NCBI RefSeq assembly: GCF_010183535.1
Contig: NC_071333.1
Location: 4,586,587 to 4,650,586 of the forward strand
From: Caenorhabditis remanei
Taxonomy: Eukaryota; Nematoda; Chromadorea; Rhabditida; Rhabditidae
DNA: 64,000 nt
Direction: 5' to 3'
Shown: piece by piece, positions 4,111 to 18,070 of the stretch
How positions within the stretch are numbered: the stretch's first letter is position 1
Layout of the letters: the number at the start of each line of letters is the position of its first letter
The notes under the pieces: model-generated
The model's input: only the letters and a program-made list of their open reading frames with translations
Databases searched by the model: none
Told to the model about the DNA's origin: nothing
Made by a program: the position numbers and the translations under genes

Positions 4111-6067
4111 GATAACACTACCTTACTACCCTAGGCCCACCCTAGAACATTCTAGACCTAAAATAGTCCAACCTAGATGGTAGAGAAAGGAAAAGGGGGG
4201 GGGGAGGGAGTTAGGATTTAATAAAAATCAAAGTAAACATATCTAAAATTAATATTCCCGAAATGCCGGCGACAAATGACGATTTGGGCGACGAAGAAAA
4301 CGTTGGAGACCAATCAGTGACGACGGAGGGCTGGAGACGGCACATGAACTTCATTACTGTAAATAATTTTTTTTTAATCAGAAAATTGAAAACAAGGAAA
4401 AACACATTCCTACAACCTTAAAAAATTGATAATCAGAAGATTTTTGCGCAGAGAACTGTATCTTTCTGCGTTTGATCCTCAGAGATGATTTCAAATCAGA
4501 ATGCTCACCTTTTCTTCGATTTCTTCTCATACTTTTCACTTTCACTAACTCATTCTCAACCAATTTTTCTCCAATTTTCACATTGTCCTCAACTTTTCTC
4601 GTGGGCCAATCCCTCTCCGTTTCTGCAAATTTAAAAGATTTCGAGTTGCTCAAAATCTTTAGAACTGCTGTGCGCAGAATCAATCAGAGGAGTTTTTAGG
4701 AAGAACTGCTTCTAAAGGCTTACACGTCGTTGTGTTTCTGTCATTTTGGCCAAGTATTCAGGTCTCATCCGTTGACCAGACCAACCTCTCGAAACTCGTA
4801 CCCGATTTGTCAATTTTTCAAGGCTTTATACACATGTTAAGCTTAATTGAGGTTCAGTTTCTAAGTTTTTGTCTTTTAGAACAGGAATAAAAAATTGATC
4901 ATCCGTTTCTCATAAATTCAAAAAATCTGTTTTTCGACAGCTTTAATTGGAAAATGCTGAACAATTTCTTACTTCCGAACTTAATGTGAGTGAAACCACT
5001 TTTGTTGCTCACACCGCCCTATCAACTTGACTCATTGACTCGTCGCGAGCATTTCCGGTTGTTTCTCCAACATGTGTGGTCTCAAAGGTAGAATTTTTGC
5101 CTAGCTTAACCTATGACTACTGGAAAAAAATTTAACCGAAAATTGGAAAAATCGACACTTTTATGCCTAAAAACAAGGCTCAGCGATGTTTTTCTACTTT
5201 GAACTTGCTCGAACTTTTTTTTTATTAAAAATTATTTTATTGTATATGATAGTTTTGAGAGGCATTGCAAAATCAAAACACTTACTCTGTCTCCGAGTCC
5301 TTCTCCAATCTATCCAAAACTTTCAAAACTTCCACATTCATCCACTTTATCGCACACTAATTGGGAAATCTGAAAATTTTATGAGATTAATCACTGAATA
5401 AATACTTGTAAACAAAGAACATACATTAATTTTAAATATGTTGGTTGGCCTGCAATCGGCTAGCCTTTGAATATTAAAAATGGAGGGAAAAATATAATCG
5501 ATACCCTTACATTTCGAAATGATTAATGAATAAAAGGGAAGAGAAGTGGAATGGGAGAAATAGTAAAAGAGACACAGGCGTGTAGAGACCAGACGTTGAG
5601 GTGAGGGAACATGATTGATTGAGAGGGTGCACTGTGAATAAGAGCCAAACGAGCACTGTCGCAGGTCATCGTGTTGATAGCGGTGTGCTGGTCGATAAAA
5701 GAGCGAGAGCAACGGGGAGCGGTTTGGGCGTGCCAAGTATTGCAAACTGAGACGTTGACAGCAGTTAGAGGATAGACGAACAAAATAATACTTTATAAAG
5801 CTAAACTATTGTCTGAACGACAATTTGAAGTCATCTGAAAAGGAAGTGAAAACAATCAAAATATGTATTATGCATAATGCCCGTTCGCATTTTCAAAAAA
5901 TTATGCAGTTGTGGAACAGAACATTAATTCAAAAAAGAGAACTACTTGGAAGAAAAATGTTTTTTGTTGAGTTTCTGGTGCTAACAGTACTGCATTCAAA
6001 TTTTGCTGTTTAGGAAGACCGATCTAGCGTGAAATTGAACCTAGTTTAACAGACATGAAAAAAAAAA

Positions 6068-6838
6068 CAAAACGTCGTATTATTCGCCACCCTGTATTAA
6101 AGATTTTTGTGATGACTCGATGATCGCTGTTCGTTACGTTTTTTCTAAAAGAGTGTTCATCCGTTGTTGAAAATATGAGAAAAACGACAGAAAATAATCA
6201 AAAAAACAACGTTGTGTTCAATTTTTTACAGGAAAACCGTTTTTCCAAAAACTCATCAACATTTTTGAGCTGTGCGTGTTATGAGCTTTTGAAAAAGCAC
6301 CCACAAGATTATTTTCTGTGCAATTAAAGTCTCGTGGCAATATCTACAGCACCCAGCAACCTTCGTTATTGCGGTGAGACTCTAACTGCATGAAACCTTT
6401 TCGTGATTATATTCATTTGAACCGTCCTCAAAAATTGAATTCCAAAATGACCATGAGAACGAAAAAGTGTAGATCCGTTGTTAAAAATATGAGAAAAACG
6501 ACAGAAAATGATCAAAAAACAACGTTGTGTTCAACTTTTTACCGGAAAAACCGTTTTTTCCAAAAACTCATCAACATTTTTGAGCTGTACATGTTATGAG
6601 CTTTTGAAAAAGCACCCACAAGATTATTTTCTAAAACATTTTTAAAAAATGTACAGATTTTTTTTATTTATTTGCTCACTTTTGACGTTTTTTTCAAAAA
6701 TTGAACCAATTTTTACCGATTCTGTTAACTTTCCCCCCCCCCCCCCCCCCCCAAGCTGGATTTCTGTTCAGAAGCGAATAAAAACTAAATTATGTTAAAA
6801 ACGTGTGTTACTATAGTGTCATAGTGAACTCTGGTCAC
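6068..6838 (+). repeat. left terminal inverted repeat
   Basis: Reverse complement of 14208-14665. It runs from CGTCGTATTATTCGCCACCC, through a 20-base C tract (6733-6752), to CTCTGGTCAC. It contains an internal direct duplication: GAAAAACGACAGAAAATxATC occurs near 6178 and again near 6492. The CACCCTGTATT near the end resembles termini of Tc1/mariner-superfamily elements, but this is only a resemblance. Confidence 0.7.
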
Positions 6839-7152
6839 TATAAAAATGATTAATAAATATTGAAAAAATGGATTTATTCATAATATAAGAAAGCTGGAAA
6901 TTGGAAATTTTTATTTTAGTTCTATCTTTTTAGAAAATTCGTAATTTTTATGTAGGAGCCCAGGAAATTCCTCAAAATGAAATTTTCAAGCAAAACTGGG
7001 AGAATCCTGGTCTGTTAGCGTTAAAAATCAAGAAAAAACTAAAAAACGAGAAAATTGCGCCTATCGTGAGATTATTTTTTAAGTTTGATTTTTTTATGTT
7101 ACACATTCTTCTTTTTTTCAATCGTTCATTTATTTAAATTAAAAAAAAACAT

Positions 7153-7296
7153 ATTTTTTGTTGTACAACGGAACAGGCAGGATTGCCAGTTTTGGGGAAT
7201 GTGAGAAAAAAAAAGAAAATACAAATTTTTTGTTGTACAACGGAACAGGCAGGATTGCCAGTTTTGGGGAATGTGAGAAAAAAAAAGAAAATACAA
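7153..7296. repeat. perfect tandem duplication, 2 x 72 bp
   Basis: A 72-bp unit beginning ATTTTTTGTTGTACAACGG is repeated head to tail (7153-7224 and 7225-7296) with almost no differences, implying a recent event. It lies just 3' of the minus-strand gene. Confidence 0.85.
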
Positions 7297-7372
7297 TAAA
7301 AATCACGTGAACTATGAATGAAACAGGAGAAGCACGTATGCCAGAAATGAGTGAAGAATAATCCGTCCTCGT

Positions 7373-9758
7373 CTACTCTTTATGAACTGGTTTCTTCGGA
7401 ATGTGACCCGGAGATATGCCGCTTTTCTTGAGAAATTCAATAATAGACATATGCATCTCTCCTCCGTCTGACATGCTCAAGGATGGAACTTTAGGAGAAA
7501 CGCTGTTAATCCGACAAATTAGTTCTCGGAATGCTGAATAATTGAAACACGTGGGTATGAGGATGGGTTTTTAAACCTACATTGGTGTCCATATTGATCA
7601 AAAAAAAATCGGAAGTTTCTTTCATTCTGTGCAGTCATGATTCCACCTGAGAGCTTTACCAATTTCTTAATTTTTCCTTCTATTTCTGAATAGTCCGGTT
7701 TTGTGATCAGAGGATTGAAGTCGGAAGCATAAAACTCATCCTGAAATGATGAATCAGATATAATGACGCACTGGCAGGAGCGTCACCTTGAATAAATCGA
7801 AAGAGACACTCTTCCTTTCGGCTCCAATCAACTCGCCAGCGTTCATGGTCAACGATGATGCACAAGTAATTTTTCCTAGAATTGTGAAACTAAAAATTTT
7901 ATTCAACAATCTGCCTACCTGTTGATGTTCGACCTATAGTTATGAATCCGTTCGAGCAAAGATTTGGAGGTTTGTGCATCAATTTAGTGATTTCAGTGAA
8001 ATCAAAAATTGTAGAATCGGGCACGACTTCTCCAACAGAATCAATTTTTTCGAGAAGGAATTTACCAAATTCTGAAGTCGTGGATATATGCGAAATTGAT
8101 CAAGAAATGTTACCGATTGGATCTTTAATATCTGCTCCACTAGTTGATTTTGATATTGTTCCAAAATGTGCGTCCACACTCATATGAGTGTGGCCCACAC
8201 TTGGATACACCAAACAGATCTGTATATGAAAATTCATTACACATTCGTGGATTTCGACAGACCTCCTTGATGTGTTTCAGTTTTGTCAATGCGAATCCCA
8301 ATCCTCCAAGAAACATGAACGATTTGTTGTTTCGTGAACTGTCCAGTATTATATACAAAATGGAAGAAATCGATCTGAACTTAGAAATACCATTAAGCAA
8401 TACAGAGACATTATAATTTGAATCATGATGATAAGAGCCTTGCATCATAAAATATTCGACGTTTTTGAACTGGTGCACGCCTGAAATTCAGAATGTTTCA
8501 GTAAATTATTGTTGTTTACCTGTGTTCTCAGCCAACTGAACCGTTGTCAATGTGAGGGGAACTCTATCTAAGTCACTTATGCTTTTAGGTCTGCTTGCCA
8601 ACATTGGAAATTTGGTGTAACGGTTCGCCATAGCATCTGCTAAAAGAACAGAAACATCCGTATCGGAATCCCGAGAGAGTTTTGTCAAGCATTGCACAAT
8701 TACCCTCTGTTGACTGAAAATGGAAGGTGTCTTAACCATAATGTTTCATTTTTACCTGACGAGCACATGATGCATTTTGAGAGTGTTTTCAGCATCCATC
8801 TTTTCCTGTTTGTTCTTTGCCGTTGCAATCATCTCCGGAATTGTGGTGCAGCTTACGCATCGCGTAAGAGAATCTGATTTTCTTTCACGCAGTTTTAAAT
8901 TCATCTTTTTTCTCAATATTGAGATAGGGACTTCTAATGATTCTTTATTGGTGTTTCTGAAAATCAATTCTGTAGTGAGAAAATAATCATTAGAAAACCT
9001 CATTGAAAATTTAGGAGGAAGCATCAACTGGTTCAGAGAGTTGAATTGCACCACTTTTGAAAGATTACAAATTGCGGATGACATTTTTTCAATGGATTTT
9101 TGATACCACGGACGAGAAGTCACGTCTACATACGGGGTCTCCAATGCATTCAACAATCTTAACATGGGTAAAAGTTGAAATTTCGAATTGTAAGACTTTG
9201 AACTAACACATTCAGAGAGAACCCAAAGATTCAACTGAGAAGTTCTCCACATATAGAAACCTCCATATTGCAGGGAGCAAACTGTAATGAGTCATTGGAC
9301 ACTCGTACAAGAGTGGAGATGAATAGTTGACGAGCTTTCCGCTTTCCTTCGGTTCCCATTGAATTGAAAAATTGTAAATAATGAAAACGAGAGCACAAGA
9401 TGTCAACCCTACAAAACTGTAATAAAGTCAAGATGATTATTTGTTTCAGCAACCTTCTAACAAAGAATACACATTTCTTCGGGCAACACTCAGTTCCTAA
9501 GATGTCTTGTGAAGGATAAGAATGTGAAGGCATGCACAAATTCAGGAATTCCTTCTCTGCTGCTTCCAGCCTATCGAATGACTGAAATATAAAACCTGCT
9601 TTTGAACCATCAGTCCCGTACAATCTCTGTCTCCATTGATAGTGATCTCCAAAAACCGAAATTGACTCCGCGTAAAAATAGAAATGCTCTGTGTTAACCT
9701 TGTCGATCGCTTTATAGCGTGGCAACCTCGGGAAAAAGTTGTTGTCGTGTTTTCTCAT
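7373..9758 (-). CDS. transposon-derived protein with DUF7869-like domain (663 aa, 10 exons)
   Basis: Exons on the minus strand: 9758-9454, 9416-9261, 9202-8756, 8713-8520, 8480-8263, 8219-8114, 8071-7919, 7875-7787, 7740-7578 and 7533-7373; all phases match and the stop is TAG. From about residue 295 the order of motifs follows the DUF7869 family of uncharacterised transposon proteins. A CxxC-HH segment comes first (CVSC at ~285, HH at ~320). It is followed by an R-rich helix, a 'VLLADAMANRYTKFP' strand, HHDSNYNVSVLL, LDSSRNNKSFMF, and the hallmark VGHTHMSVDAHFGTIS near residue 490. In the family the third element is usually DNxxRENKN; here the second acidic-rich motif reads DSSRNN, so a key position may be altered. 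A hydrophobic stretch follows residue ~100. Role inferred: DDE/RNase-H-like nuclease of a mobile element. It is divergent from the next gene, 62 bp away. Confidence 0.78.
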
Positions 9759-9820
9759 GTGAACCACGTGTGAAGCACAATCATCAAAAACACTTTATTG
9801 CGAATTGTAGTGTTCTTCGA
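9759..9820. promoter_or_regulatory. compact bidirectional promoter region
   Basis: Only 62 bp separate the two divergent start codons (9758 on minus, 9821 on plus). It contains CACGTG (an E-box-like palindrome) near 9765-9770, just inside and beside the minus-gene start. Either both genes share this promoter or one has an upstream non-coding exon that I cannot see. Confidence 0.4.
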
Positions 9821-12449
9821 ATGTTGTCCGAACTGGTACTAGGTGATGTCGTTGTGGTATGCCGTCAAGAGGCACCGGAGTATCTTTCATCTTGCTTTCG
9901 AAATGCAAAGCTGGTATTTTTGAACGATCGGGAGAAAATAAGGCTTAAAAACTACGAGCAAGTTCGTTTCCACCCAGAAATTATATCATTTTTCACACTA
10001 CTTTTCAGATAAAGGTCCCTCGAAGTGAACCTATTTCTAACATTTTCCTTGATTTAGAAGACCGAAATCTTTATCTGACCAATTTCGTTTTGGATCAGAA
10101 TCTTTTGGAAATCCCAGTGAAAGCTATTGCGGTTTTTGAAAATAAAATTGCGGTAATAACTGGAAACTGGCATGAGGTAATTGTGAAATTTTAACAGATT
10201 TTCATTGGGAATAAATCACTATTGTTCGATCCTGATAGATTTGGAGATGGAATTCAAGATGCTCAGTTTTTCAAAGACATTTTTCACAAAGGAAAAGTGC
10301 AAGATGTGCAGATGAACATTCAGAACAAAAGAACAACAAAAAAATATTATGAAGAATCAGCAATCACATACAGTGATTATTCCAACTCTGGAGAACTCGG
10401 AGTATTCACAATTGAAGAATATTTATCAGTCGATCGAGTTGCACAGAACTTCGAAAAAAACTTAGGATCAGACGATATAGATGGAGCCAATTCCAGTACA
10501 AACACTTCTGTTCAAAACATGCCTATTGGATTTGAGAAAGATTGTCTTAATGAAATCTACGAACCGACTGAAAACCCTGGAAAGATCGTCCCAGTCGTAT
10601 GTAGAAACAGAGATGAGAACATTTATATAAGTTTTTCCAGAAGCCGATCCCAATTTCTGCACTCGACTCTAGAAAAGTTAGAGAAATCGAGATACTTCGG
10701 TACATGCAAAAAGTGGACGAACTGTTGAACGGATTGACAGTGAACCAGAAAGAAGTCATGGTTTCTGCTGATCAAATCACGTTGTCGAGAAATTTTGCTA
10801 CCTCTGACAGTACCGTAAGGAAGATGAAGAATCATTTGGCTAAACATTCGGAGCTACCCCACCCAGATCCCATCATAGTTGTGAAACAGTTAGTCTTGTG
10901 TCTATTAATCTGGCCAATAAAAACTACATCAGAAACGAAAATCTTCAAGTTGTTTCGGGTAACAGAAGAGTGTCTGCATATAAAGCAATGTCTAGAAACA
11001 AGGTATTAGAAATTTAAACCTTTATAAAAAGAGAAACAGGAAGTTTCAGATTTGGGTTTCCGAGATTGATTCTGAAGACTTTTTGAAATTCCGGCTCAAT
11101 AGTTATTTCGGTTCAAATGTTGATGCCGATCACGAACTCATTGTTATGGTAATGTTGTGAATCAGTCAATAAAAGGAGCAAGAACGTTTCAGAAGAATAT
11201 AATCAAAGACCTACTATCATATCTGAATATTTCCAACTCAATGCTAAAAACATGGACTGCTATCGAAAAAAATAGAGTCTTCGGAAAGTTATTTCAGTCC
11301 AAGGTACATAGTTCCGTCTATTTTTAACTTTCATTTTGTGATTAGATGAAACTTCGACACCTCCTCGACATTTATCCACATGAGCGTTTGATGGAGACAC
11401 TGATGAAGCTCAGTTCTGATGGGCTAAAGTTTAATGGATACTCTCTACGAGATATTGGGAGGAAATATCGGAAAAACCCAAAATCAACCAACTCTGCTCT
11501 AGAAGCCGTAACCACAGACGTAGAACTGAAAAATGTGAGTTATTCTCCTTCAGGTTGTTTTCAAACTCCAAATTTAGGCAATTTCTAAACTAAGGCCAGA
11601 TGTCAAGTTTCTGCTGGAAGAGAAAAACGTTCCTGAAGACGTGGCTCAAGAATTATCTATAATTTATGAAGATGATCTGGAATTCCTCAATTTCGCCAGG
11701 TATAACAAAATGCTCTAGATAGTACAAACTACGATTCTTCCAGAAGCTCAGATCTACGATGCATCAATAGAGCGACACCATTGTCAGCGGTTACTGACAA
11801 GTTCCATGTCTTTCTCAATAAGAAAAAGACTTCTCCGCCTTGCTCAAAAACGAACTTCATTGTATCTAATATCTCCGATACTGAATTTGACATTCTATTG
11901 ACAGCCAATCATGAGTTTGCACTTCAAGCGACAAAAATCAAGGAATCGATTTTTATATTATCAGTGGGATCATTACTTTCGAATTCGGATCACATTCTAT
12001 TGCTACCAGATCAAATGGGAATCGAAGACTGCAACGGAAGTAAGTAAGATCCACAATTTTATCATTTACTACGCAAGTTTCAGAGCTGAATAACTATGTG
12101 TCTCTCGAGATAATAATAAAAGTGGATGGAGAAATACTTCAGGGAAGAGCAAAAACCACATTTTTATCTCGCTGTGGGATAACCAACCGAATCATTTATA
12201 CCACTGATCAACTGTTCGGACTATCCCAAGAACACAAAACCTACTACATAGACTTCGGAGGACTAATTTCAGAAGGTTAGCAGACTGAATAATGAACAGT
12301 TCACTTCAAGAACAATTTCAGAGCTCGCAAAGCTACTCATTCCGCCAGATGCTACAATTGTTGTCAAGACCGCAAATCAGCAACAAAAACTCCAAAAATA
12401 TTTCACCAGAAGAGTTACCGAGAGCCTTACGATTGCGCCCACCAGATAA
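9821..12449 (+). CDS. unrecognised 700-aa protein, 12 exons, partner of DUF7869-like gene
   Basis: Exons: 9821-9961, 10009-10152, 10198-10596, 10641-10809, 10890-11002, 11050-11148, 11193-11303, 11346-11534, 11578-11699, 11744-12039, 12084-12275 and 12322-12449. All phases agree and the product ends at TAA. I do not recognise the protein. The first ~130 residues are rich in short beta-like strands (for example AIFIGNKSLLFDPDRFG). Residues ~140-270 are acidic and probably disordered. The middle is helical, and the last 200 residues again look beta-rich, with YYIDFGG near the end, faintly Tudor-like but not a firm match. No signal peptide or membrane segment is seen. The least certain junction is intron 4: donor A|GTACCG at 10810, chosen because the unspliced frame does not continue. 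Its position inside the inverted repeats suggests a second transposon protein. Confidence 0.72.
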
Positions 12450-13171
12450 TGCAAAGATGATCCGTATCATTTTAGTTACTTGATCTCCCGAGCGTTTGCT
12501 GACACTTAATTGTTTTCGTTTAAATTATTCATAACTTCTTTCCCCAGAAATGGCAGTCTTGCCCTTTCCGCACTTGAATTTCTCTTTTTTTATTTTCCTC
12601 GTTGTATTCATCAGAAACGGCAGCATTGCTAATCATGATAATAAAAGTTCACAAATAAACTATTTAAAGGTTCACGTTTTCAATATAATTTCATAATAAA
12701 CATTATAAATTAAAAGGTCAACAAACCCAGGGAATAAAAAAACCTTGCAAAATGGTAGGGAAATAATATCCTCTTCGCGAGCATGTAATTTTGCACATAT
12801 TACTTCAATTCGCAGCGATACAGACTCAGAAAAACATTCAATTTTTAATAAATTAACTTTTTCTGTTAAAACCCATAAAACCTTCAAAATTTGATGAAAA
12901 CACTTTTTTTTTGGGGAGCTGAACAGAATTATATAGCTTTTTTCATGTTCACAACACTTTTTAAAAACTTTCCAAATTCCAGCTTTCTTATATCTCTCCT
13001 TTGTTAGTTGCTTCAATGTTGGGACGTGTACACGTTGGAATTAGCACTGATGGATTTTAGTTTGAAAAGAAAAGTTCAGAAACGTCTCACGACCCTACTG
13101 ACTGTCTCACAATAAGAACTCTGTTTTATTATACTAATCAGGAGTAGATCTCTAATTTTGTAGTAGACAAC
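12450..13171. other. intergenic, no gene seen
   Basis: Contains the putative 3' end of the plus-strand gene (AATAAA-like sequences around 12650) and AT-rich sequence. A minus-strand open frame at 12672-13016 has no splice or similarity support. Confidence 0.4.
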
Positions 13172-14207
13172 TTTTTTGTTCGAGCACTCGCTAGATATTT
13201 ACAGTCAGTGAAAGCAAAGATATCAAAAATGCTATACGGATTTAGGTCTCTTTTAACAGTCGAATGATTACTGTACATTTTCCGATAATGTACATTATTT
13301 GCAGGTGAAGCCGCGGCCTCGGCTTTCTAAAATATAAACTGAAAACATGACTTGATATACTTCTGATTTTTGGTAGCAATCTGACCACCAGGGTTCAACC
13401 CCCACTGGTGCCAAAACTTTTTTTTTTGTTTTTGACTTCTGGATGCTAAAGTCCTTACTTTTCTGCGAGATTCAATTTCGAAACATCCTTCGAAAGATTC
13501 TTCGAAAATTGTATCAAAAATATCGAAGATATAATAATCCGAAATTCGACTCTCAAGGCTAATAGATGATAAAAACTGTAATATTGGTTTTGACACCAAT
13601 TGGAACCGAACCCTGAATATCAGATTGGCACCAATAAGTCAAAAACAAAAAACAAAAAAGTTTTGGCACCAGTGGGGGTCGAACCCTGGTTCTCAGATTG
13701 TTACCAAAAAGTCAGTGGGAGAACCCTAGATGTCAGATTGGGAACAAAATTGAAAAACCCAAAAAATCTTTTCAAAAACAACCACGTATTTCAACATTAT
13801 GAAAAGAGCCGCGGCCGGCTGTGCGACAGCGTTGCATAATGGCAGATGTTTGCGTCGGAAGCGTTGAATGAGTTCTGATAGAAAAACCTTACAAATTTCA
13901 TAAAAATGATGGAAAAACTAGAGAACAGCTGCACTCAGAAAGCAAATATTGTCGATGTATTTTTTTGTTGGGTGAACACCTGCTATTTTCAGAGCCTCTT
14001 TGAATAAGAAGAAAATGGAAAAATGATCAATTAAAGGGGTGTTATGAAAAAAGAATAGAATGCTCACACATTCACCTGCAAATAATGAACATTATCGGAA
14101 AATGTACAGTAATCATCCGACTGTTAAAAGAGACCTAAATCCGTATAGCATTTTTGGTATCTTTGCTTTCACTGACTGTAAATATCTAGCGAGTGCTCGA
14201 ACAAAAA
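13172..14207. mobile_element. MITE-like element with ~130-bp terminal inverted repeats
   Basis: 13172-13305 (TTTTTGTTCGAGCACTCGCT to TTTGCAGGTGAA) is the reverse complement of 14076-14207. The interior is itself partly palindromic: GGTTCAACCCCCACTGG near 13393 mirrors CCAGTGGGGGTCGAACCCTGG near 13668. No transposase frame is visible, so it is non-autonomous. It sits flush against the inner edge of the right 14208-14665 repeat. Confidence 0.65.
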
Positions 14208-14665
14208 GTGACCAGAGTTCACTATGACACTATAGTAATACACGTTTTTAACATAATTTAGTTTTTATCCGCTTCTGAACAGAAATCCAGCTTGGGGGGG
14301 GGGGGGGGGGAAAGTTAACAGAATCGGTAAAAATTGGTTCAATTTTTGAAAAAAACGTCAAAAGTGAGCAAATAAAAAAAATCTGGCCATTTTAGAAAAA
14401 TGTTTTAGAAAATAATCTTGTGGGTGCTTTTTCAAAAGCTCATAACATACACAGCTCAAAAATGTTGATGAGTTTTTGGAAAACCGGTTTTCCGGTAAAA
14501 AATTGAACACAACGTTGTTTTTTTGATCATTTTCTGTCGTTTTTCTCATATTTTTGCCAACGGATGAACACTCTTCTAGAAAAAACGTAACGAACAGCGA
14601 CCATCCAGTCATCACAAAAATCTTTAATACAGGGTGGCAAATAAGTACACGACGTTTCGTTTTTG
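14208..14665 (-). repeat. right terminal inverted repeat
   Basis: Reverse complement of 6068-6838, without the internal duplication of the left copy. It includes a 17-base G tract (14294-14310) matching the left C tract, and ends in AATACAGGGTGGCAAATAAGT...GACGTTTCG. Confidence 0.7.
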
Positions 14666-14722
14666 CACTTGTTGGCACTGTGCCAAGAGACATTTTCGAA
14701 ATGTTTCGAATATTTTCGAAAG

Positions 14723-14986
14723 TCAGAGCTTGGCAAATTTGCTCCAACCACCCGCAATGAGACCCTGGAGTTCCTATTCAACAATCAGAGTGGTGACAAG
14801 AAGAAAATTTACCAGGAGCATGATATGGTTTATGTTAGAGATTACCGTAATCTTAAAAGCCCTAACTGGGTAACAGGCATCATCACACGACGAGGCGGAC
14901 ACACTCTATACAAAGTGCTAATCAACGACCCCGCTAAACGTGACGAAAAGTTTATTCAGCTGTTCGGAACAGAAAAGGGTCAATAA
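14723..14986 (+). pseudogene. LTR-retrotransposon integrase C-terminal fragment
   Basis: An open stretch of about 87 codons beginning ELGKFAPTTRN and containing EHDMVYVRDYRNL, WVTGIITRR and TLYKVLI, ending FGTEKGQ and a stop. The order 'D-x-V-x-V-R-x-Y ... W-x-x-G-x-I ... Y-x-V' is typical of the C-terminal integrase domain of Ty3/gypsy- and Pao-type polyproteins. The rest of the polyprotein is missing. A close inverted homologue lies at 17753-18070. Confidence 0.65.
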
Positions 14987-15337
14987 AAAATGAGTTCTTC
15001 GAACTGGAAAATAGAACAAATAGAGCTCATTTTCATTTTCTACTCAAGAAAGAGAAATGAGAGCAAGCTGTTCTATTTTCCGGTCAATGAACTGAATTCG
15101 TGAACATTCACATAATATGGAGCATCTGGTAACCTCGAAAATTGTCCATTTTTATCATACTTGCTCATTCGTACTCCGTTACATAAACTTACCATTGAAT
15201 TTCTCAAAACTACACTATCGGAAATGCCAGATTTTTGAGCAGACCACGTTTCCGAGATATTCCTAGGGGAAGTCGTACGGAAAAATTATCAACTACAGTA
15301 AGAAAGCCTTGCTTTTGATCTACAACATTGATTTAAT
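14987..15337 (+). repeat. sequence following integrase fragment, left arm of inverted duplication
   Basis: Matches the reverse complement of 17410-17760 nearly base for base, from ATGAGTTCTTCGAACTGG to TAAGAAAGCCTTGCTTTTGATC. Because it directly follows the integrase stop it may be 3' UTR or LTR sequence. A related trace (TGTAGATCAAAAGCAAGGC) recurs near 20180. Confidence 0.65.
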
Positions 15338-15880
15338 TTTGAGCTCAAGACACAGTCACTGACAACGTGGCTCCTTCTCAAAAGTACACCAGATTCTTAA
15401 CGAAAAATCACAAATGTCGCAATGTGTATGACCAGTGCTTTAGTAGTGAGAGTCCTGATTGGCGGCATACAGACTTGTCAAAAATCGGGCCGGACCGGGA
15501 TTTTCCTTGACCGGGCCGAAAATTCTCTTGGCCCGGATTCAAAAATGGGTACCCATTTTTACCAATTCTTTTTTGAAATTTTTCGAAAAAAAAAAGAGTA
15601 AAAATGCTTAAATCATCATACTTATTCACATTTTGATTCAATTTTAAATGTTTATTCGAAAACTATATTTTTTTCAAAAAATTTCAAAAAATTTCCAAAA
15701 ACTTCCAAAAAAAAGTTCAAAAACACAAAATGTTTTGAAAAAATGTTTCAAAACGGGCCGAGCGGGTCGGGCCGAGATTTTTCTTGATTTGGCCCGGCCT
15801 GGCCCGGCCCGGCCCGTGACAAGTCTGGCTGCATATCTTTCGTGGAGTTTTCGTCTGTAATGTTATAAAAAGATATTTAA
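15338..15880 (+). repeat. direct repeat copy 1 (partner 17027-17410)
   Basis: TTGAGCTCAAGACACAGTCACTGACA through TGTTATAAAAAGATATTTA occurs twice in the same orientation, each copy carrying a MITE at the same site. The duplication therefore came after the MITE insertion. Confidence 0.7.
15470..15827. mobile_element. hAT-like MITE with GGCCCG-rich ends, copy 1
   Basis: Starts CAGACTTGTCA and ends TGACAAGTCTG; the subterminal regions are GGGCCGGGCC-type runs. Flanks are GCGGCATA (15462-15469) and GCTGCATA (15828-15835), an 8-bp target duplication with one mismatch. CA...TG ends with an 8-bp duplication suggest the hAT superfamily. No transposase is encoded. Confidence 0.7.
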
Positions 15881-15959
15881 AATTTTGCCCGGACAACCGC
15901 CACCAGTCTCTTCGAGTACAGCCTGAAAAACTTCGTGTATTCTTTTCAGCATAGTTCAA

Positions 15960-17026
15960 CCTTTTAATGACAAATAATGAGGCTTGAAACGTCGTGACAT
16001 CACAGTTTTTTGCATATTTCGGGTGAACAGAAAGAAAATGTGAAGAAAGGGACGCTTATCTTTTTAAAGGACATCGAAACTGGAAGAAGGCCAAAAACAC
16101 TTAATTCAGAAAATAGATGAGTCATAAAAGTTTTATCAATTTGACAGAATCTTCACAGTCGACCGATCATACTGTAAAACATAGTTCATTGAGTATTCAC
16201 TAACTCCATTCTGTTTCATAATGTTATTTAATAATATATCACTTATGAAAAACATTCTCATTCTTCATTTCACTCTAGGACCCCTCAATAGTTAATGTAT
16301 TTCCCCACGGAGGATTCGGTGCCATCTACCAAAATGGCAGATGTTTGCACCTGGAGCTTTCAAAAATCTGCTAGAGAACAACAGAAAATAAATTAAAAAG
16401 TATACCAAAAACTGGAGTAAAAAAGTGAACATCTGGACTTGTGCAGTGAGGAAATGTCATCGATGTATGATGTTGTTACCACCTGCCAGTTTTGAAGCGC
16501 TCGTAGATGGACATAAACGAGAAAGAATAGTTTCTTTTGATAGGGGCGAAATGTGAAAGTGTGATGAAATTTTTTTGACAAAGAATTTCAACTCCGACAA
16601 ATGGATAGTCTCCGTCAGAAGACGTTTAAAGGAAGAAAACATTGTTCATCAAAAAATGACTGAAAATTATTCAGTCGTTTGAAACACACGTTTACTTCAT
16701 TCCCGCTGAATCCACTTTTTCGACGTGAGGAGATCTGACAAAAGAAATCTTTTTTGATCAAAATTTGAACATTTCATATATTAGTTGATACAGTAACCCA
16801 AGAACAAACAAGTGTTTGACTTTTCACACGATTTCAAATCCTTTCAATTATATGCAACTGATATGAATCGAAAATCCGTACTTCGCTGAAAATACATATT
16901 CTTGACGTTTTTTTTTTAAATTTTCTCCCATCCATTCGACAACATCTGAATAATTTGGAACAGTTGGATTCGGTTCGATTCACCATAATGCAAGGCTGTC
17001 AGAAATTGCGGCCGGAATAATTTTGT
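15960..17026. other. spacer between repeats, no gene seen
   Basis: About 1.1 kb of AT-rich DNA without a supported coding region. Short minus-strand frames at 16393-16642 show no conserved motif. Confidence 0.35.
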
Positions 17027-17159
17027 TTTTGAGCTCAAGACACAGTCACTGACAAGGTGGCTCCTTCTCAAAAGTACACCAGATTCTTAACGAAAAATCA
17101 CAAATGTCGCAATGTGTATGACCAGTGCTTTAGTAGTGAGAGTCCTGATTGGCTGCATA

Positions 17160-17352
17160 CAGACTTGTCAAAAATCGGGCCGGGCCGAGATTTTCCTTGA
17201 CCGGGCCGGGCCGGGACGGGCCGAAAATTCTCTTGGCCCGGTAAAAAAAAATTCAAAAACACAAAATGTTTCAAAACGGGCCGAGACGGGCCCGGCCGGG
17301 CCGAGGTTTTTTCTGATTTTGGCCCGGCCCGGCCCGGCCCGTGAGAAGTCTG
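17160..17352. mobile_element. hAT-like MITE with GGCCCG-rich ends, copy 2 (internally deleted)
   Basis: Same termini as copy 1, flanked by a perfect 8-bp repeat GCTGCATA (17152-17159 and 17353-17360). It is 193 bp against 358 bp, having lost central sequence. Confidence 0.75.
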
Positions 17353-17409
17353 GCTGCATATCTTTGGTGGAGTTTTTGTCTTTAATGTTATAAAAAGATA
17401 TTTAGAATT

Positions 17410-18070
17410 TTGCTGTAGATCAAAAGCAAGGCTTTCTTACTGTAGTTGATAATTATTTAGTACGACTTTCCCCTAGGAATATCTCGGAAACGTGGTCTGC
17501 TCAAAAATCTGGCATTTCCGATAGTGTAGTTTTGAGAAATTCAATGGTAAGTTTATGTAACGGAGTACGAATGAGCAAGTATGATAAAAATGGACAATTT
17601 TCGAGGTTACCAGATGCTCCATATTATGTGAATGTTCACGAATTCAGTTCATTGACCGGAAAATAGAACAGCTTGCTCTCATTTCTCTTTCTTGAGTAGA
17701 AAATGAAAATGAGCTCTATTTGTTCTATTTTCCAGTTCGAAGAACTCATTTTTTATTGACCCTTTTCTGTTCCGAACAGCTGAATAAACTTTTCGTTACG
17801 TTTAGCGGGGTCGTTGATTAGCACTTTGTATAGAGTGTGTCCGACTCGTCGTGTGATGATGCCTGTTACCCAGGTAGGGCTTTTTAGATTACGGTACTCT
17901 CTAACATAAACCATATCATGCTCCTGGTAAATCTTTTCCTTGTCACCATTCTGATTGTTGAACAGGAACTCCAGGGTCACATTGCGGGTGGTTGGAGCAA
18001 ATTTGCCAAGCTCTGAGTCTTTGTTCACTTGTTTTGGCCAGTTGGATCTGATAAAACTTGGGAAATGCTT
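17410..18070 (-). pseudogene. inverted integrase C-terminal fragment with downstream arm
   Basis: On the minus strand, about 18070-17753 encodes WPKQVNKDSELGKFAPTTRN, then EHDMVYVREYRNL, WVTGIITRR, TLYKVLI and FGTEKGQ-stop. It is about 90% identical to the plus-strand fragment at 14723-14986. 17410-17752 is the matching downstream arm. Together the two form a palindromic arrangement of retroelement 3' ends about 3.3 kb across. Confidence 0.65.

What the first reader, a model, noticed from the sequence alone, without database searches (positions are those of the whole stretch)
6068..14665. Candidate undescribed two-gene DNA transposon: long inverted repeats around a divergent DUF7869-like gene and an unknown 700-aa gene
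Seen: about 0.5-0.8 kb inverted repeats at 6068-6838 and 14208-14665 bracket exactly two genes with 62 bp between their starts. Known: DUF7869 proteins (hallmark VGHTHxDID-like motif) are widespread and uncharacterised, often repetitive, with features of a DDE/RNase H fold. Inference: a self-contained element whose second gene may be an accessory or target-selection protein. A two-gene element of this layout in nematodes would be of real interest.
Basis: partly seen in the sequence, partly recalled or inferred. Interest (0 to 1): 0.92.

Follow-up and report, generated by a model that had tools for sequence, protein, structure and literature searches.

The report
Two-gene worm transposon with ParB-like partner
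The sequence is a mobile DNA element of a roundworm that carries two genes back to back, one likely encoding its cutting enzyme from an uncharacterised family and the other resembling a bacterial chromosome-segregation protein, which makes it a good candidate for an undescribed kind of animal transposon.

Summary
Inverted arms (96% identical once an internal duplication is set aside) bracket two divergent, intact genes, 62 bp between starts. Gene A (669 aa) is a DUF7869 protein (Pfam E 5.5e-15). Gene B (712 aa) has a ParB-like region: UniRef names it so, and three diverged copies match TIGR00180, though weakly. In the host genome (Caenorhabditis remanei) gene A was found at four places; all four also carry gene B and at least one arm. 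Two of them, on different chromosomes, are 99.7% identical where they align. That family also has short copies without either gene. Of six insertions tested, two have empty sites, showing precise insertion at ATAT, compatible with a TA or ATAT duplication. The window copy's tips fit TA. One family's arms carry seven 35-bp near-perfect palindromes at 63-bp spacing, resembling a parS or iteron array. Most likely gene A is an RNase-H-fold transposase and gene B binds the arms; both functions are inferred. The one published parallel found is an algal Sola1 element with a ParB-methyltransferase gene. Corrections: the tips lie at 6097 and 14627, the outermost bases being mariner sequence, and another element is nested at 13173-14207.

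The parts
6063..6094 (-). short end of a Tc1/mariner-type element facing outwards (not part of this element)
   Evidence: 34-36 bases here match the mariner ends in L005, L006, L009-L011
6095..6096 (.). TA next to the left tip (putative target duplication)
   Evidence: CACCCTG-TA|TTAAAGATTTTTG
6097..6839 (+). left inverted arm, with an internal duplication (6148-6317 repeated at 6462-6632)
6883..6912 (+). probable inner remnant of the left arm, pairs with 12964-12993
   Evidence: pair I9, 30 nt, 93%
7373..9758 (-). gene A: DUF7869 protein, 669 aa, 9 exons (9758-9309, 9234-8756, 8713-8520, 8480-8263, 8219-8114, 8071-7919, 7875-7787, 7740-7581, 7533-7373); putative transposase. Exon model is mine
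9759..9820 (.). 62-bp region between the two starts (possible divergent promoter)
9821..12449 (+). gene B: 712 aa (public record GCK72_022883, P0001), ParB-like
10641..11002 (+). exons of gene B with the ParB-like motif (DPIIVV..LQVVSGNRRVSAYK)
12964..12993 (-). probable inner remnant of the right arm
   Evidence: pair I9
13173..14207 (.). nested repeat element (137-bp inverted ends, 98%)
14207..14627 (-). right inverted arm
14628..14629 (.). TA next to the right tip
14630..14724 (+). end of a Tc1/mariner-type element facing outwards (not part of this element)
   Evidence: 84-96% matches to 5 places in the genome

Best explanation
This is one copy of a two-gene, cut-and-paste-type DNA transposon lineage of Caenorhabditis. 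Shown: a conserved two-gene layout with inverted arms in four copies, dispersal of one family to unrelated sites, precise insertion of that family at a TA-containing palindrome, and short derivatives without the genes. Inferred: gene A (DUF7869) is the transposase, with an RNase-H-like fold and candidate catalytic residues D336, D421 and D463 (the last in GHTHxSVD). Also inferred: gene B, with a ParB-like region followed by a helix-turn-helix-like stretch, binds repeated, partly palindromic sites in the arms and helps pair the ends, control expression or choose the target.
For: Same layout at C5:21.03-21.04 Mb and C2:14.07-14.08 Mb; a copy of the latter at C5:12.99 Mb, 99.7% identical over the 4.7 kb that align, has a sharp end in different flanking DNA. 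Gene A was found at 4 places, all 4 with gene B and at least one arm. 23 distinct ends of the C2 family share one tip, with 'AT' before ATAAGAG in 23 of 23. Empty sites were found for 2 of 6 tested insertions; 4 paralogues fetched for each read ATAT once. DUF7869: 5.5e-15. ParB. In both genes nonsynonymous differences (0.31-0.41) are far below saturated synonymous ones (0.72-0.85). Seven 35-bp palindromes lie in the C2 arms (4 left, 3 right) and recur in short copies.
Against: No fold confirmation: both predicted models are unusable (mean pLDDT 32 and 35), and the gene A profile finds no transposase in the PDB (only a transcriptional regulator, E 1.2). ParB support is weak in score: full-length P0001 and the C5 model have no ParB_N match at E up to 1, and the C2 piece scores 18.3 bits against a cut-off of 26.3; TIGR00180 scores 15.2 against 58.45 for the window copy. 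Gene B of the C2 family is not reached by a genome-wide search or by default tblastn at 1e-3 among the loci; its homology rests on tblastn of 1.9e-4 and 8.6e-5 and on a hand-joined model. A palindromic ATAT target cannot distinguish a 4-bp, 2-bp or absent duplication. Comparable strong palindromes were not found in the arms of the window or C5:21.04 copies. The selection estimate used only stretches with at least 30% local identity.
Confidence: 0.83

Rival explanations
1. A real transposon whose mobility depends on gene A alone (or on an unrelated transposase in trans); gene B is a captured cargo or self-regulator not needed for movement.
For: Short copies without either gene have moved, so both products could act in trans; the role of gene B is untested; ParB-methyltransferase genes in algal transposons are described as accessory (PMC12477816, passages).
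Against: Gene B accompanies gene A in all 4 places found, across synonymous saturation, and is conserved at the protein level, which cargo rarely is.
Confidence: 0.3
2. A host gene pair that happens to lie between inverted duplications; not mobile.
For: The window and C5:21.04-Mb copies are single in this genome, and their arms have no other full-length match.
Against: A related pair on two chromosomes at 99.7% identity with a sharp tip; short copies with empty sites; 4 of 4 gene A places have arms.
Confidence: 0.05
3. A dead copy of such a transposon: the window copy is intact by sequence but no longer mobile, and only the C2 family moved recently. (Compatible with the best explanation; it concerns present activity only.)
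For: Window arms are 96% identical and the left arm is rearranged; a nested element and mariner ends have accumulated. The C2 and C5:12.99 copies are 99.7% identical.
Against: No stop or frameshift in gene A of my exon model or in the public model of gene B.
Confidence: 0.5

Closest known systems
Sola1-1_Ec32 of Ectocarpus (PMC12477816; passages read) and similar algal transposons cited there
   Different: there the protein is 1104 aa with a DNA methyltransferase domain, the element is 21.5 kb, the host is a brown alga and the transposase is Sola1; here no methyltransferase was recognised, the transposase candidate is DUF7869 and the host is a nematode
DUF7869 family (Pfam PF25273)
   Same: gene A matches at E 5.5e-15, over the curated cut-off; Caenorhabditis relatives P0002, P0003, P0004 and P0006 carry the Pfam domain, P0005 does not
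   Different: the family is only a domain of unknown function; no paper in the library held the term
Bacterial ParB-parS partition systems
   Same: ParB-like motif (GNRR/GHRR where ParB has GERR) followed by an HTH-like stretch; palindromic array at the ends of the C2 family
   Different: no ParA-like gene was seen among the two genes; eukaryotic transposon; CTP binding untested; match scores below curated cut-offs
Two-gene TIR transposons such as PIF/Harbinger, En/Spm and MuDR (recalled, no call)
   Same: transposase plus a DNA-binding partner between inverted repeats
   Different: neither protein matches a transposase or Myb family in Pfam at E up to 1
Tc1/mariner
   Same: TA-type target
   Different: gene A has no Tc1/mariner match in Pfam at E up to 1; long arms and a second gene

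Membership tests
DUF7869 (PF25273) | Pfam model over its curated cut-off | tested here: met
   55.9 bits against 26
ParB/sulfiredoxin domain | profile match over a curated cut-off | tested here: not met
   ParB_N 18.3 of 26.3 bits for a piece of the C2 copy, no match at E up to 1 for full-length P0001 or the C5 model; TIGR00180 matches 3 of 3 pieces, best E 3.1e-4, 15.2 of 58.45 bits for the window piece
ParB/sulfiredoxin domain | GxRR motif in the expected place and register | tested here: met
   G and RR invariant in 3 of 3 copies; aligned to GERR of ParB structures; UniRef name
ParB/sulfiredoxin domain | ParB fold | tested here: inconclusive
   fold model unusable, mean pLDDT 32
ParB/sulfiredoxin domain | CTP binding | not testable with these tools
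   needs purified protein
TIR DNA transposon | inverted ends, internal genes, dispersed copies | tested here: met
   (that gene A is the transposase is inferred)
TIR DNA transposon | target-site duplication | tested here: inconclusive
   ATAT target, palindromic: TA, ATAT or none; window copy fits TA
RNase-H-fold DDE/D transposase | RNase H fold with three acidic residues | tested here: inconclusive
   candidate D336, D421, D463; models too poor; no PDB profile hit to a transposase
Sola1 with ParB-methyltransferase | DNA methyltransferase domain in the second gene | tested here: not met
   no methyltransferase match for P0001 in Pfam or for its last 244 aa in PDB, Pfam and PHROGs
Tc1/mariner | Tc1/mariner DDE domain | tested here: not met
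   only DUF7869 at E up to 1

The most novel reading that the evidence does not exclude
An undescribed superfamily of animal cut-and-paste transposons in which a DUF7869 transposase works with a ParB-type protein that loads, perhaps as a CTP-dependent clamp, on parS-like palindrome arrays in the arms to bring the ends together or steer insertion to TA palindromes. It would suggest that other DUF7869 proteins of unknown function are transposases too.
Probability: 0.3. Interest if true: 0.92.

Novelty: new variant of a known kind. Interest (0 to 1): 0.78.

Why it matters
It gives a structural context (ends, target, partner gene, gene-less derivatives, empty sites) to DUF7869, a domain of unknown function, and so makes the claim that DUF7869 is a transposase directly testable. 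A ParB-like partner in an animal transposon was not found in print in the searches (open-licence papers only, and several lists were shown in part); the one parallel found is in algae. If ParB-type proteins recur as partners of unrelated transposases, this suggests a shared way of handling transposon ends.

Tried and rejected
Fold prediction: gene B alone and gene A relative P0003 with 4 others gave mean pLDDT 32 and 35; no fold search was run, since the tool warns that low-confidence models give meaningless matches. The predicted strand/helix order in residues 247-347 of P0003 looks RNase-H-like to me, but I do not rely on it.

Wider relatives: the profile search of gene B found only itself. 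The viral-contig scan with gene A had 37 pattern matches and no relative. A phage tblastn with gene B matched 83 records, 10 of them listed; best E 2e-3, those with annotation being glucosyltransferases or hypothetical proteins, outside the ParB region; taken as chance.

Degenerate methyltransferase in the C-terminal part of gene B: considered because of the algal parallel; searches gave no support.

Mariner-mariner junction as the target of the window copy: the joined palindrome with up to 2 mismatches was found 0 times in the genome. So whether the two outward mariner ends come from a junction, two later insertions or copying between the arms is open.

Similarity of tips between families: window against C5 copy 11 of 14 bases, reached by 13 of 3792 TA sites in the window; window against C2 10 of 14, reached by 62; C5 against C2 8 of 14, reached by 556. 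Suggestive only.

My first gene B model (778 aa) had wrong exon joins; it was replaced by the public record P0001. The C5 and C2 gene B models were joined by hand with homology as a guide, so their identities and scores are approximate and somewhat biased.

Full report
WHAT IS THERE. The interval holds two arms in inverted orientation and, between them, two divergent genes. The arms are 6097-6839 and 14207-14627. The left one contains a roughly 315-bp internal duplication; without it the arms agree at 406 of 423 aligned positions. A 30-bp inverted pair further in (6883-6912 / 12964-12993) is probably an inner remnant of the arms. A separate element with 137-bp inverted ends is nested at 13173-14207.

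THE GENES. Gene A runs from 9758 to 7373 on the minus strand in 9 exons with GT-AG introns of 39-74 nt and encodes 669 aa without a stop (exon model mine). It matches Pfam DUF7869 at E 5.5e-15, over the curated cut-off, and nothing else at E up to 1. A 5.8-billion-protein search found 5 relatives: three C. brenneri, one C. nigoni, one C. remanei (only the 7997 candidates sharing most words were scored). Candidate catalytic residues are D336 (ADAM), D421 (LDSS) and D463 (GHTHxSVD); that they are catalytic is inference. Gene B runs from 9821 to 12449 on the plus strand and corresponds to public protein GCK72_022883, 712 aa. Starts are 62 bp apart. The host is taken to be Caenorhabditis remanei: records naming that species lie on contigs of exactly the lengths of C6 and C5 of the window's genome.

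GENE B IS PARB-LIKE. UniRef's own name begins 'ParB/Sulfiredoxin domain'. Independently: a profile of three copies has a ParB as its only PDB match at E up to 10, E 0.052. A profile of the central region has 7 PDB matches at E up to 10: 4 named ParB (4umk E 0.012, 7bnr, 7bnk, 7o0n; the rest 0.4-0.7), one Spo0J (6sdk; a ParB by recall), and two others, a major urinary protein and a conserved hypothetical protein. TIGR00180 matches 3 of 3 pieces, best E 3.1e-4. PHROG families named ParB-like match up to 2 of 3 pieces, best 1.9e-5; for the window piece itself the best PHROGs are of unknown function and the best ParB-named one has E 0.033. Pfam ParB_N matches 1 of 3 pieces, E 0.002-0.0025, below its cut-off, and does not match full-length P0001 or the C5 model at E up to 1. 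The alignment puts GNRR/GHRR on the GERR motif of ParB. A helix-turn-helix-like stretch follows, with a weak match to a phage terminase small-subunit family (E 0.0054). The last 244 aa match nothing convincing.

SAME LAYOUT ELSEWHERE. Searching the host genome with gene A from C. nigoni gave 14 exon matches at four places: the window, C5:21.04 Mb, C2:14.08 Mb and C5:12.99 Mb. Searching with gene B (P0001) gave 12 matches at two of these, the window and C5:21.04. In the two C2-family copies gene B is more diverged: default tblastn at 1e-3 among the loci missed it. It was seen by local comparison, with tblastn E 1.9e-4 from P0001 and 8.6e-5 from the C5 model against the 6.3-kb element. A hand-joined C2 model gives blastp 7.7e-27 to P0001 and scores 121.6 bits with a profile of the other two, against at most 6.5 for 1000 shuffles. 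All four places have at least one arm. The C5:21.04 copy is about 6 kb with arms 98-99% identical built of 93-bp units. The C2 copy is about 6.3 kb with 39-bp terminal repeats and subterminal repeats of 63-bp units. The C5:12.99 copy is 99.7% identical to the C2 copy over the 4.7 kb that align (one 93-bp gap) but lacks one end within the 9.9 kb fetched. Its other end stops at the tip in different flanking DNA, so it is transposition rather than a segmental copy. Between the window copy and the C5:21.04 and C2 copies synonymous differences are saturated (0.72-0.85) while nonsynonymous ones are 0.31-0.41, in gene A (416 and 322 codons) and gene B (281 and 88 codons) alike (restricted to stretches of at least 30% local identity, which biases towards conservation). 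The pair has thus stayed together for a long time under constraint.

MOBILITY AND TARGET. The C2 arm has 57 matches in the genome, including eight short copies (about 0.75-2.9 kb) with both ends located. In the 17 loci fetched around such copies neither protein (tblastn, E 1e-3) nor the element's interior DNA finds a match. Twenty-three distinct ends, found in the fetched loci with up to 4 changes allowed, share the tip ATAAGAGATTGTAAATTTC; all 23 are preceded by AT, and the base before that is A 6, C 7, G 10, T 0 (my count; two of the 23, L053 and L054, share their flank). Of six joined flanks searched, two found empty sites; the search scored 40 of 297 candidates, so the other four are not excluded. 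For each of the two, four paralogues were fetched and all eight read ATAT once where the occupied site reads ATAT at both ends. Insertion is therefore exact at ATAT; whether the duplication is ATAT, TA or none cannot be told from a palindrome. The window copy reads CACCCTG-TA|TTAAAG...CTTTAA|TA-CAGGGTG. That fits a TA duplication, as does the C2 family if its element begins TAAGAG. TA is my preferred reading. The window arms themselves have only relic relatives: 76-81% matches at C6:3.11, 3.12 and 2.88 Mb.

A PARS-LIKE ARRAY. In the C2 copy a 35-bp palindrome (17-bp arms with one mismatch, 1-base centre) occurs 4 times in the left arm and 3 times in the right, at 63-bp spacing. Forms with up to 5 changes occur in 12 of the 16 other loci of this family examined beside the two gene-bearing ones, several loci belonging to one copy; they were not found in L043, L052, L053 and L054, where only one end was found. 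Palindromes this strong are rare: the 64-kb window has 6 with arms of 12 or more. The C5:21.04 arms carry a weaker one in the 93-bp units, and the window arms only short ones, so the array is clear in one family of three.

MECHANISM. Most likely the DUF7869 protein cuts and joins the ends, and the ParB-like protein binds repeated sites in the arms, assisting end pairing, regulation or target choice. Steps shown: layout, copies, precise insertion (C2 family), constraint on both genes. Steps inferred: enzyme activity, fold, DNA binding, roles. Structure prediction did not help.

KNOWN RELATIVES. No paper in the library held 'DUF7869'. Searches for ParB with transposons, Caenorhabditis, nematode or transposase (20 of 29, 11 of 11, 12 of 34 and 10 of 489 papers listed) and for two-gene elements, Sola and C. 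remanei transposons (1 of 1, 6 of 6 and 15 of 49 listed) gave one relevant paper, PMC12477816 (passages read). [quoted passage not shown] The other papers were seen only as search listings. Subscription literature and Repbase were not searched, so an existing entry for these C. remanei repeats under another name is possible.

VERDICT. A real two-gene transposon lineage, one family of which was mobile recently; a new variant of a known kind, possibly a new superfamily.

Noticed in passing
window 14723-18016: A second large inverted repeat (606 bp, 97%; 14723-15327 against 17411-18016) begins directly at the end of the mariner sequence; an ORF at 14645-14986 looks by eye (recall) like the C-terminal part of a retroelement integrase, but Pfam finds nothing convincing.
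   Followed up: partly
window 8172-8195; C5:21.04 copy at the homologous place: The codons of the GHTHxSVD motif form a 24-26-bp palindrome in both copies, conserved with the protein; probably a coding coincidence, but it could be a binding site.
   Followed up: no
window 6063-6094 and 14630-14724: The same end of one mariner family points outwards from both tips; the joined mariner-mariner junction was not found in the genome with up to 2 mismatches, so the order of events is unexplained.
   Followed up: partly
L053 (C6:20954104) and L054 (C4:18304250): Only about 110 bp of the C2-family end sits inside a larger repeat with its own long inverted repeats, at the same place in both: a nested or captured transposon end.
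   Followed up: partly
L020-L021, C6:3105000-3124800: Several kilobase-scale direct duplications (2.6 kb at 96%, 1.6 kb at 98%) and a 0.7-kb inverted one around relic pieces of the window arms.
   Followed up: no
window 7136-7296: Tandem duplication of a 72-bp unit just downstream of gene A.
   Followed up: no
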